From NCBI GenBank assembly GCA_020847315.1, contig JADLCF010000389.1, positions 1 to 34,800 of the forward strand: a stretch of 34,800 nucleotides of DNA, given 5' to 3'. Below the pieces are notes generated by a model that saw only the letters and a program-made list of their open reading frames with translations, was not told the origin of the DNA and made no database searches. This stretch comes from Bryobacterales bacterium. GTDB lineage: Bacteria; Acidobacteriota; Terriglobia; Bryobacterales; Bryobacteraceae. Made by a program: the position numbers and the translations under genes. Position 1 is the first letter of the stretch. Every line of letters starts with the position of its first letter. Of this stretch, positions 24,690 to 34,800 are shown in pieces.

Positions 24690-25059
24690 GCCGCGACTGA
24701 CATATTCGGCGAAGGAACAATACGATTTTCAAAGAACGAAGCGATGCGCTGGGCAGCTTTGAGCGGGGAAGACGGAGATCTCTCACGCAGAACGATTACG
24801 CCGATCGCGTGTGGGAAATCGAACCATGGCGGGAGTTGCGCCGGGTTGGAGGCCGCGCAACCCACGGAATCCAGGGAGGTTGTGGGAAGGGAGGAAAAGT
24901 AGCAAGATCGGTGATCGCGCGGCGGGGCGAGCGCTTTTGTTCGCGAGATCGTGGGGACGGGTTCGGCCGGATGGAGGAAGGGAAGAGCGGAGAGTCCGCA
25001 GTGCGGGATTCGAGCGGGAAGGCCTTGGTCCGAGGTTCTGTGGATTACCGGAATGTGCC

Positions 25060-25592
25060 ATTTTGCGGAACGAAGCCAAAGGGGTTTGCGGGCACTGGGC
25101 GGAGGATGGAGATGTGGCGGGCGTGGCCGCGGGGGAGTCGCGCCCGCAAATAGGCGGTCGCTTCGTGGACTCGCTGGCGCGAGGCGGTTTCTTTCTTGCC
25201 GTAAGGCCTATTTGTGCGTCCGGTTGATTGTAGCGGCGGCGGGGGCGGATTTGACCTTTGTGGAGGCAGTGCGTCAATGCGGGTGGGCCTCCCCGATGGT
25301 GGAAGTGATGGCCTGCGTTGCCGTTCCGTGATTCCGGGGTGGAAGCGAATTTCTCTTCGCTGGCTGTGACTGCGATTCAGACGGCTGCGCGATGTAGGGT
25401 AGATCGGAGTGGTCTGGCTCGCATTGGAGGTTAGGGAATCCACTTCGGTGGGCAAGGCATCGGCGGCTTCTGGACCCCCCAGGCGCTGCTCGGAAAGAGG
25501 CCTAACGCGGCTGGAATTCCTGCTTGAAGTTGCATAACAATCGTGGAATCAGCGTGTTAGCGTAAAGCCAAAGCGTAGCCTGTCCCTCTTTT
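25060..25592. repeat. Dispersed direct repeat, copy 1 (left boundary approximate)
   Basis: High identity to 28262..28904 at a ~3200 bp offset; e.g. identical run gattcagacggctgcgcgatgtagggtagatcggagtggtctggctcgcattggaggttagggaatccac. Confidence 0.9.
25500..25562 (+). other. Imperfect bulged hairpin (attC-like), copy 1
   Basis: GCCTAACGCGGCTGGAATTCC ... GGAATCAGCGTGTTAGC; stem retained with one G.T wobble relative to copy 2. Confidence 0.5.
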
Positions 25593-28014: not shown

Positions 28015-28699
28015 TGGGATTGTAGGGATGGGAAGTGCGGAAATCGGGGCGGTGACTCGCTAAGCCATTGAGGGCAAGGGAGATGTGGTTTCGCAAGATG
28101 CGTGATCGCCTTGGGCGAGAGCGCTGTTTTTGGGTGGTTTTGCGTGGATGAGGGCGTTACGGAGCGTCGCGCCGACAAACGGTCCGACGCGACATGGTCT
28201 CGCTCGCGCTCGGCGAGAGTGTTTCAGAGCCTTGGGTTGGCCCTCGGTCAAAAAAGGGACCGTATTACGGAACGAAGCCAATCGCGCAACGGGCAATCGG
28301 CGTAAGCCGAGGATGCAGCGGGCGTGGCCGCGCCGGAGTCGAACCCGCAAACGGGCGGGTGCTCCATGGACTCGCTGGCGCAAGGCGGTTTCTTTTTGCC
28401 GCAAGGCCTATTTGTGCATCCGTTTGATTGTAGCGGCGGTGGGGGCGGATTTGACCTTTGTGGGGGCAGTGGATCGGTGCGGGTGGGCTTTCCCGATGGT
28501 GGAAGTGATGGCCTGCGTTGTAGTTCCGTGATTCCGGGGTGGAAGCGAATTTTTCTTCGCTGGCTGTGATCGCGATTCAGACGGCTGCGCGATGTAGGGT
28601 AGATCGGAGTGGTCTGGCTCGCATTGGAGGTTAGGGAATCCACTTTGGCGGGCAAGGGATCGGCGGCTTCTGGACCCCCCAGGCGCTTCTCGGAAAGAG

Positions 28700-28762
28700 G
28701 CCTAACGCGGCTGGAATTCCTGCTTGAAGTTGCGTAACCTACGTGGAATCAGCGCGTTAGCA
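28700..28762 (+). other. Imperfect bulged hairpin (attC-like), copy 2
   Basis: CTAACGCG-(G)-CTG-(GA)-ATTCC pairs with GGAAT-CAG-CGCGTTAG: 16 bp, bulges all on one arm, 24-nt loop. Confidence 0.55.
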
Positions 28763-28778
28763 TAAAGTGAAAATGGTG

Positions 28779-28889
28779 GAGCCTGTCGGAATAAAGAATT
28801 CTCGAACCTAGAATCAATAACTTACGGACGATCAGCTCCTCGTAAGTTATTGATTCTTCGTTGCTCCGCGTGTTCATTCCGACAGGCTC
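28779..28889. mobile_element. 111-bp MITE-like palindromic element with 14-bp TIRs and GGTG target duplication
   Basis: TIR GAGCCTGTCGGAAT (28779-28792) / ATTCCGACAGGCTC (28876-28889); inner 16-bp arms GAATCAATAACTTACG (28811-28826) / CGTAAGTTATTGATTC (28841-28856); GGTG at 28775-28778 and 28890-28893. Confidence 0.85.
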
Positions 28890-28904
28890 GGTGGCTGTCC
28901 CTCT

Positions 28905-29033
28905 TTTTCGGAGATTCAACTCAGAGACCACCTCGGCAATGAAGCGGGCCAAGTGCGATTCCGGCAACCAATCATGGAGGGAAGGAGCCACGAGAAGCGG
29001 CTGATCGAGAGTACAGGGCCGAAATCTCCTCAT
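28905..29033 (-). pseudogene. N-terminal remnant of an IS1182-family-like transposase
   Basis: MRRFRPCTLDQPLLVAPSLHDWLPESHLARFIAEVVSELNL matches the typical N-terminus of this family; truncated at the repeat junction. Confidence 0.75.
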
Positions 29034-29214
29034 ATGTCCATTGGATGCGATCGGCCAGAACAAGGCTGCACGGAAATGTTTGCGCATCAAGAAAGTTGAC
29101 GTGTTAATCTCCGACAGGCTCACTTCCTGTCCCCGAATTTGTCCCCGAATTCGTGTCGGCTCCCGTAAGCCTATGATGTGGCAGAATATACCTTACAGGT
29201 CGAAGTGGAGGAGC

Positions 29215-33852: not shown

Positions 33853-34334
33853 GAGTACTCATAATTGATGATGAGAAGTTCGCTGCGGAGGGCCTTAAAA
33901 ACTTTTTGAGTGATCAAGGCATAGAGGCAGACGCAGTTGTTCGCCCGAGCTATATTGATGCCGCTAAAGATGCGTGTACCATACTCAGGGCGATACATAA
34001 TGAAGATACTGCATATGCGGCGCTGATTCTAGATATTCATTATCAAGATCATTTCATCGGCGGAATCAAGGTGTACGCAAAGTTACTGGCCGAGAACCTT
34101 CGCGGCAAGTTTCGCCATTTATTGATATGGACGAAATACTATCCGAGCGGGGGAGTGAAGTCGGACGAGTTTAAGGCTGTTGAGATTTTCCGAGAGTTGA
34201 GCTTTGCGCCACCACAGAATGTTCTGCCCAAAGGGACAGCATCCGATCAAAAAAGAATCGTGGAGAGGCTCTCGGAGCTTGCGAAGGAAGTTAACACGCC
34301 GGTAGGGACGTATGGTATGTGGCGGTTTCACTAG
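33849..34334 (+). CDS. Stand-alone receiver-domain response regulator
   Basis: MRVLIIDDEKFAAEGL; ALILDIHYQD; LLIWTKYY; NVLPKG; ATGA overlap with the kinase; no output domain. Confidence 0.78.
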   Translation: MRVLIIDDEKFAAEGLKNFLSDQGIEADAVVRPSYIDAAKDACTILRAIHNEDTAYAALILDIHYQDHFIGGIKVYAKLLAENLRGKFRHLLIWTKYYPSGGVKSDEFKAVEIFRELSFAPPQNVLPKGTASDQKRIVERLSELAKEVNTPVGTYGMWRFH

Positions 34335-34350
34335 CCAACCAGGGGAGGCC

Positions 34351-34367
34351 CCCCGGCTCTGCCGGGG
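34351..34367. repeat. Hairpin CCCCGGC-TCT-GCCGGGG, probable IS200-type end structure
   Basis: 7-bp perfect stem, 3-nt loop, ~85 bp upstream of the tnpA start. Confidence 0.65.
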
Positions 34368-34452
34368 TGGCAGTAGAAGTTTGACATTTGAGGGAGTCCA
34401 TCGCCGAAACTCTGAATCGTGAGCCGCCAAGCACACGAAAGGAGAAACCGCG

Positions 34453-34800
34453 ATGGACGACTTTGAGAGTCTAAGTCACACGAAGTGGGAGTGCAAGTAC
34501 CACATCGTGTTCATTCCCAAGTATCGCAGGAAGGTGCTTTACGGACAGTTGAAGAAGCACCTTGGAGAGATCTTCCACAAACTGGCGATGCAAAAGGAAA
34601 GCCGAATCGAAGAAGGGCATTTGATGAGCGATCATGTGCACATGATGATCGCAATCCCACCGAAATATGCAGTGTCGCAGGTGGTGGGCTACATCAAGGG
34701 CAAGAGCGCGATTCAGCTGGCGCGAAGCTATGGGGAGCGGAAGCGGAACTTTGTCGGGCAGCATTTTTGGGCACGAGGATACTTCGTGTCCACGGTGGGG
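34453..34800 (+). CDS. tnpA: IS200/IS605-type TnpA (Y1 HUH transposase), truncated by window end
   Basis: MDDFESLSHTKWECKYHIVFIPKYRRKVLYGQL...EEGHLMSDHVHMMIAIPPKYAVSQVVGYIKGKSA; HVH = HUH motif; open to the window end. Confidence 0.95.
   Translation, partial: MDDFESLSHTKWECKYHIVFIPKYRRKVLYGQLKKHLGEIFHKLAMQKESRIEEGHLMSDHVHMMIAIPPKYAVSQVVGYIKGKSAIQLARSYGERKRNFVGQHFWARGYFVSTVG

What the first reader, a model, noticed from the sequence alone, without database searches (positions are those of the whole stretch)
28779..28889. 111-bp MITE-like palindrome with precise GGTG target duplication
Seen: 14-bp perfect TIRs, plus inner 16-bp perfect arms around a 14-nt loop. GGTG flanks both sides. Removing the element and one GGTG gives aaaatGGTGgctgtccctctttttc, which aligns with the uninterrupted sister repeat (aaagcgtagcctgtccctctttttc, 25570-25592). 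This is an internal empty-site comparison within one window.
Basis: seen in the sequence. Interest (0 to 1): 0.65.

Follow-up and report, generated by a model that had tools for sequence, protein, structure and literature searches.

The report
IS1182-type miniature transposon (MITE) family
This 111-base palindrome is a small gene-less jumping element found in at least a dozen places in this soil-type bacterium's genome, almost certainly moved by the transposase of a larger known mobile element family (IS1182) whose broken remains lie right beside it; it is a new member of a known kind.

Summary
Window 28779-28889 has 14-bp perfect terminal inverted repeats (TIRs), 17-bp (not 16) perfect inner arms around a 14-nt loop, and GGTG on both sides. 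There are 12 full or near-full copies in the host genome with the same ends. All 10 that can be tested have exact 4-bp duplications. Across relatives, 31 of 39 distinct copies do. Empty sites with a single target copy exist in a congeneric genome. The TIR is identical over 18 bp to the right end of an intact 1691-bp IS1182-family element in a congener. A truncated copy of that IS lies in the window itself, just downstream (28911-29121). MITEs and IS copies also share a target rule: TGTCCC exactly 6 nt outside the element end. Relatives occur in 13 of 76 sampled genera of the family (Bryobacterales). IS1182-derived MITEs with 4-bp duplications are already known (MITEPye1; ISMac2-type), so this is a new member of a known kind. 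Less ordinary: two inverted IHF-consensus matches at fixed distance from both ends, conserved across genera but absent from the IS ends. Their function is untested.

The parts
28779..28889 (.). the 111-bp MITE (type A)
   Evidence: 12 copies with the same ends in the host genome; TSDs
28775..28778 (.). left target-site duplication GGTG
28890..28893 (.). right target-site duplication GGTG
28779..28792 (+). left TIR GAGCCTGTCGGAAT
   Evidence: matches IS1182-family ends
28876..28889 (-). right TIR; read inward GAGCCTGTCGGAATGAAC matches the right end of the intact IS1182-family element L075 over 18 of 18
28810..28826 (+). inner arm (17 bp) holding the IHF-consensus match AATCAATAACTTA at 28812-28824
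28841..28857 (-). inner arm (17 bp) holding the second, inverted IHF-consensus match at 28843-28855
28896..28901 (+). TGTCCC target motif, exactly 6 nt outside the MITE's right end
28911..29121 (-). truncated left end of an IS1182-family IS: TIR GAGCCTGTCGGAGATT at 29121 reading inward, then the first ~41 codons (MRRFRPCTLDQPLL..., start at 29033)
   Evidence: tblastn 1e-17, blastn 75-77% identity over ~197 bp; NCBIfam NF033551 E=5e-4, below that model's curated cut-off
29128..29133 (+). TGTCCC exactly 6 nt outside the end of the IS1182 remnant (same target rule)
28260..28907 (.). host repeat unit into whose 3' end the MITE inserted; uninterrupted sister at 25058-25592

Best explanation
The feature is a non-autonomous miniature transposon (MITE) of the IS1182 family. 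Shown: fixed ends, several dispersed copies, 4-bp target duplications, empty sites in relatives, TIRs identical to those of a coding IS1182-family element in a congener, and a shared target motif. Inferred: an IS1182-family DDE transposase supplied in trans binds the GAGCCTGTCGGAATGA ends, cuts the element out and joins it to target DNA with a 4-bp stagger, preferring sites 6 nt from TGTCCC. That motif resembles the element's own TIR (target GTAGCCTGTCCC, TIR GAGCCTGTCGG). More speculative: the two inverted IHF-type motifs about 34 nt from each end are bound by an IHF/HU-family protein that bends the DNA and brings the two ends together.
For: Copies and ends. TSDs. Empty sites. IS1182 partner: L075 in congener G003, 1691 bp, intact 525-aa transposase, ends GAGCCTGTCGGAGATT / GAGCCTGTCGGAATGAAC; the family is assigned by NF033551 (E 6e-51, below its curated cut-off) and PF05598 on the shorter host copy, and by 36-42% identity to annotated IS1182 proteins on plasmids. 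Left/right asymmetry of the ends (GGAGATAGA versus GGAATGAA) is shared by IS L118 and MITE L102, both flanked by CTAG. IS1182 elements of other phyla, including the ISfinder-named ISMno38, have GAGCCCGTCCGA / CAGCCTGTCGGA ends and CTAG duplications. Target motif: TGTCCC at offset 6 in 13 of 82 flanks against 0.03 at other offsets, and at the IS copies in L117, L120, L121 and the window remnant.
Against: No intact IS1182 copy of this clade was found in the host assembly (87% complete, 404 contigs), only truncated ones. Several IS copies (L075, L117, L120) sit between palindromic arms without a 4-bp duplication, so IS and MITE insertions do not look identical. Beyond about 18 bp the MITE interior does not match any IS found, so direct descent by internal deletion is not shown.
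Confidence: 0.93

Rival explanations
1. A MITE mobilised by a transposase of another family (for example IS5, IS701 or IS1380) that happens to have similar ends.
For: 4-bp duplications also occur in other DDE families (general knowledge); no active IS1182 copy of this clade is seen in the host assembly.
Against: 18 of 18 terminal bases match the congener's IS1182 end, IS1182-family elements of other phyla carry the same type of end, and the IS remnant in the window obeys the same target rule.
Confidence: 0.04
2. A functional structured RNA or transcription terminator present in many copies, selected as an RNA hairpin rather than as a mobile element.
For: Very stable predicted fold.
Against: No Rfam match. 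Changes on both sides of pairs are no more frequent than in column shuffles (5 pairs versus 3.2; 71 of 500 shuffles reach it), and the pair at columns 40/71 is broken in 9 of 22 sequences, so the sequence of each half is conserved, not its pairing. TSDs and empty sites show insertion. No terminator-like site.
Confidence: 0.02
3. The GGTG flanks are chance, and the copies spread by duplication of a larger repeat unit rather than by transposition.
For: Several copies, including this one, lie in one host repeat family.
Against: TSDs differ between sites (GGTG, GTAG, CCAC, CACC, CGAT, GGAA) but match at each site, and many flanks are unrelated.
Confidence: 0.01

Closest known systems
MITEPye1 of Paracoccus yeei (PMC11578231)
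   Same: IS1182-type TIRs (18 bp), 4-bp direct repeats, no gene, intergenic, folds into a long hairpin, presumed mobilised in trans by an IS1182 IS.
   Different: Different phylum; 1-3 copies per chromosome. Sequence not compared here. No paired IHF-type motifs or TGTCCC target rule was seen in the passages read.
ISMac2-derived MITE of Methanosarcina acetivorans (IS1182; PMC3852290)
   Same: IS1182-derived MITE, 160 bp, 14 copies, 26-bp IR, 4-bp DR.
   Different: Archaeal host; longer TIR; sequence not compared.
Correia elements (Neisseria) and QMITE1 (Coxiella)
   Same: MITEs that carry an IHF-binding site (PMC2229807, PMC5896051, PMC10969869).
   Different: Here two inverted IHF-type matches sit symmetrically about 34 nt from each end. 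The TIRs and the mobilising family differ.
IS1272 (IS1182 family), inverted-repeat-replacing transposition (PMC5678879)
   Same: IS1182-family element whose targets are palindromic; some IS copies here also sit between palindromic arms without TSDs.
   Different: The MITEs make ordinary 4-bp duplications, and no replacement of a target hairpin was seen at them.
IS elements that target REP sequences (Tobes and Pareja, PMC1525189)
   Same: Insertion next to a dispersed host repeat (here TGTCCC-type).
   Different: Only the abstract was read; its named REP-specific ISs were not compared with the IS1182 element here, and whether the TGTCCC repeats are true REPs was not tested.

Membership tests
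MITE (non-autonomous DNA transposon) | short, no transposase gene, terminal inverted repeats | tested here: met
   111 bp, 14-bp perfect TIRs
MITE (non-autonomous DNA transposon) | multiple dispersed copies with the same ends | tested here: met
   12 full or near-full copies in the host genome; relatives in 18 of 237 family genomes
MITE (non-autonomous DNA transposon) | target-site duplications of fixed length | tested here: met
   4 bp; 10 of 10 in the host, 31 of 39 overall
MITE (non-autonomous DNA transposon) | empty sites in relatives | tested here: met
   G004:C506, C17, C4, C636 and others
IS1182-derived | TIR matches a coding IS1182-family element | tested here: met
   18 of 18 with the right end of L075; family by NF033551 and PF05598
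IS1182-derived | 4-bp duplication as in IS1182-family elements | tested here: met
   CTAG at L118 and at ISMno38-type, Roseomonas and P. aeruginosa copies; ISPse1 DR 4 (PMC3281130). Some IS copies lack a TSD.
IS1182-derived | interior derived from the IS by internal deletion (not required of a MITE; many share only their ends with the partner) | tested here: not met
   No similarity beyond ~18 bp to the IS ends found
IS1182-derived | moved by an IS1182 transposase in trans | not testable with these tools
   needs a transposition assay
IHF-site-bearing MITE (Correia/QMITE1-like) | match to WATCAANNNNTTR, conserved among copies | tested here: met
   27 of 41 elements have exact matches on both strands, 6 more on one
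IHF-site-bearing MITE (Correia/QMITE1-like) | binding by IHF | not testable with these tools
   host encodes three HU/IHF-family proteins, the best scoring 112.2 bits against a 115-bit cut-off for IHF beta

The most novel reading that the evidence does not exclude
The element is built as two inverted transposon 'ends', each a TIR plus an IHF/HU-bound bend site at fixed spacing, that were assembled independently of the parent IS ends; and IS1182-type transposases choose targets by recognising a TIR-like TGTCCC motif 6 nt from the insertion point, so that host repeats act as landing sites for both the IS and its MITEs.
Probability: 0.35. Interest if true: 0.5.

Novelty: new member of a known kind. 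Interest (0 to 1): 0.34.

Why it matters
It adds an IS1182-derived MITE family to Acidobacteriota, where the paper searches made here found none, with a named mobilising family and clean duplications and empty sites. The fixed spacing between TGTCCC and the insertion point makes IS1182 target choice directly testable, and the paired IHF-type sites offer a clear hypothesis about what a 111-bp palindrome keeps besides its TIRs.

Tried and rejected
Rfam scan of the window: no family. RNA-structure reading: rejected because pairing does not covary. The genome-wide pattern CTGTCGGAAT...ATTCCGACAG gave 17 stretches, most of them chance hits without TIR extension or TSD (e.g. L080, L083, L086, L095); only the Bryobacterales and Gemmatimonadota ones look real. 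Search for solved structures of the transposase: none. Deriving the MITE interior from the IS ends: no match past ~18 bp. An apparent 1244-bp IS in C22 with both ends is a damaged copy (252-aa open frame) without a clean TSD. The palindrome count was inflated by self-overlaps and was replaced.

Full report
Observation. These are the only such inverted repeats in the window, and shuffles give 0.05 per window. As single-stranded DNA the element folds with z = -8.0.

Copies and duplications. A search of the host genome found 12 full or near-full copies at 86-100% identity with the same ends. Two are cut by contig ends. The other ten all carry an exact 4-bp duplication, and the four letters differ from site to site: GGTG, GTAG (three sites), CCAC, CTAC, CACC (two sites), CGAT, GGAA. 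Five copies are 98-100% identical to the window's element (counting itself), which suggests recent spread. A second subfamily of 109 bp has the same TIRs and a different interior, at C93, C359 and C379; two of three have exact TSDs. Across all genomes searched, 31 of 39 testable copies with distinct flanks have exact 4-bp duplications; chance would give 1 in 256 each.

Empty sites. Joined flanks were searched in the genus and aligned. The C10 site is empty in G004 at C506 and C17, with about 120 bp aligned on each side and one CACC. The site of the window copy is empty in G004:C636 (...AGTGAAAGTGGTGACTGTCCCTCTTTTTC, one GGTG). The C93 type-B site is empty in G004:C4, aligned over 135 bp with two mismatches, though only 15 bp of that lie beyond the junction. 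The C383 target is a ~100-bp repeat with empty copies in G002 and in this same window at 34331-34432. Within contig C109, an uninterrupted GAAGCGTAGCCTGTCCCTC lies near the copy interrupted by the MITE.

Host and range. G004's contig C598 carries the same element, position and contig length (12,790 bp) as JADYZL010000598.1, Bryobacterales bacterium SJ57, so the host genus belongs to the Bryobacterales (Acidobacteriota, from general knowledge). In the family, 18 of 237 genomes and 13 of 76 genera have recognisable relatives. Two 119-bp analogues with the same TIR type and 4-bp duplications are in a Gemmatimonadota MAG.

The mobiliser. One TIR search hit in the host (C22) lies beside a transposase gene that scores as IS1182 (NF033551, E 6e-51, below that model's curated cut-off) with a DUF772 domain. 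A DUF772 search of the genus found an intact element in G003: 1691 bp, 525-aa transposase, left end GAGCCTGTCGGAGATT, right end GAGCCTGTCGGAATGAAC. The MITE's right end is identical to the latter over 18 bp. In the window itself, 28911-29121 on the minus strand is a truncated left end of the same kind of IS, starting at its TIR and running through the first ~41 codons. The IS in G249 (L118) and the MITE in G201 (L102) share the left/right difference GGAGATAGA / GGAATGAA and both have CTAG duplications. On plasmids of other phyla, annotated IS1182-family elements, among them ISMno38, have ends GAGCCCGTCCGA or CAGCCTGTCGGA next to CTAG. No intact copy of this clade was found in the host assembly, which is 87% complete.

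Target choice. TGTCCC stands exactly 6 nt outside an element end in 13 of 82 flanks, against a mean of 0.03 at other offsets. It does so in several genomes and in different repeat contexts, although a few of the sites belong to one host repeat family and are not independent. The same spacing is seen at IS copies (L117 on both sides, L120, L121) and, inside the window, at both the MITE (28896) and the IS remnant (29128). In the host the motif TGTCCCYSWWTT occurs 24 times against 1 for the reversed control, and at least five of these lie 6 nt from a MITE or IS1182 end. The targets resemble the TIR (GTAGCCTGTCCC versus GAGCCTGTCGG), so recognition by the transposase is plausible but inferred. Some IS copies sit between palindromic arms without a 4-bp duplication, which recalls the palindrome targeting reported for IS1272 (PMC5678879).

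What the interior keeps. In 22 aligned copies the TIRs and the two inner arms are conserved (1.6-1.8 bits per column after thinning to 85% identity), while linkers (1.0-1.2) and loop (0.65) are less so. Pairing is not what is conserved: changes on both sides are no more frequent than in shuffles, and columns 40/71 mismatch in 9 of 22. Each arm matches the IHF consensus WATCAANNNNTTR; 27 of 41 elements match exactly on both strands at 33-36 nt from the ends. The consensus is the one used for QMITE1 in PMC5896051. The seven IS copies examined lack the motif, as does the 109-bp subfamily, so it is not required by all elements with these TIRs. The host has three HU/IHF-family proteins, one nearly reaching the IHF-beta cut-off. 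The motif was noticed after looking at the alignment, so its significance is moderate.

Comparison with what is known. IS1182-derived MITEs with 4-bp repeats are published: MITEPye1 (PMC11578231) and an ISMac2-related MITE (PMC3852290). MITEs with IHF sites are published too (Correia, QMITE1; PMC2229807, PMC5896051). The paper searches listed no work recognisable from title or abstract as describing an IS1182-type MITE in Acidobacteriota; ISfinder itself could not be searched. The finding is therefore a well-supported new member of a known kind, with two testable refinements.

Noticed in passing
window 34331-34432 and 34453-34800: An empty copy of the ~100-bp repeat into which the C383 MITE inserted, next to an IS200-like (Y1-type) transposase reading frame cut by the window end (identified by eye, not by a family search).
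   Followed up: partly
window 25058-25592 and 28260-28907: A ~500-650-bp repeat unit without a recognised gene, many partial copies in the host genome, of unclear origin; its 3' end TGTCCCTCTTTTT is the MITE landing site.
   Followed up: partly
window 29128-29151: Tandem pair TGTCCCCGAATT-TGTCCCCGAATT next to the IS1182 remnant; the TGTCCC(TCTTTT/CGAATT) motif is repeated 24 times in the host genome against 1 reversed control and resembles REP-type repeats.
   Followed up: partly
L034:1501-1609, L042:537-645, L041:1408-1516: A 109-bp sister MITE subfamily with the same TIRs but a different interior and no IHF-type motif.
   Followed up: partly
L084:932-1050 and L085:5541-5659: 119-bp elements in a Gemmatimonadota MAG with the same TIR type and CGAG/CTAG duplications: an IS1182-type MITE candidate in another phylum.
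   Followed up: no
L117:1320-2918: An IS1182-family IS flanked on both sides by GGGACAGGCAGC in inverted orientation, that is, apparently inserted in a palindrome without a 4-bp duplication.
   Followed up: no
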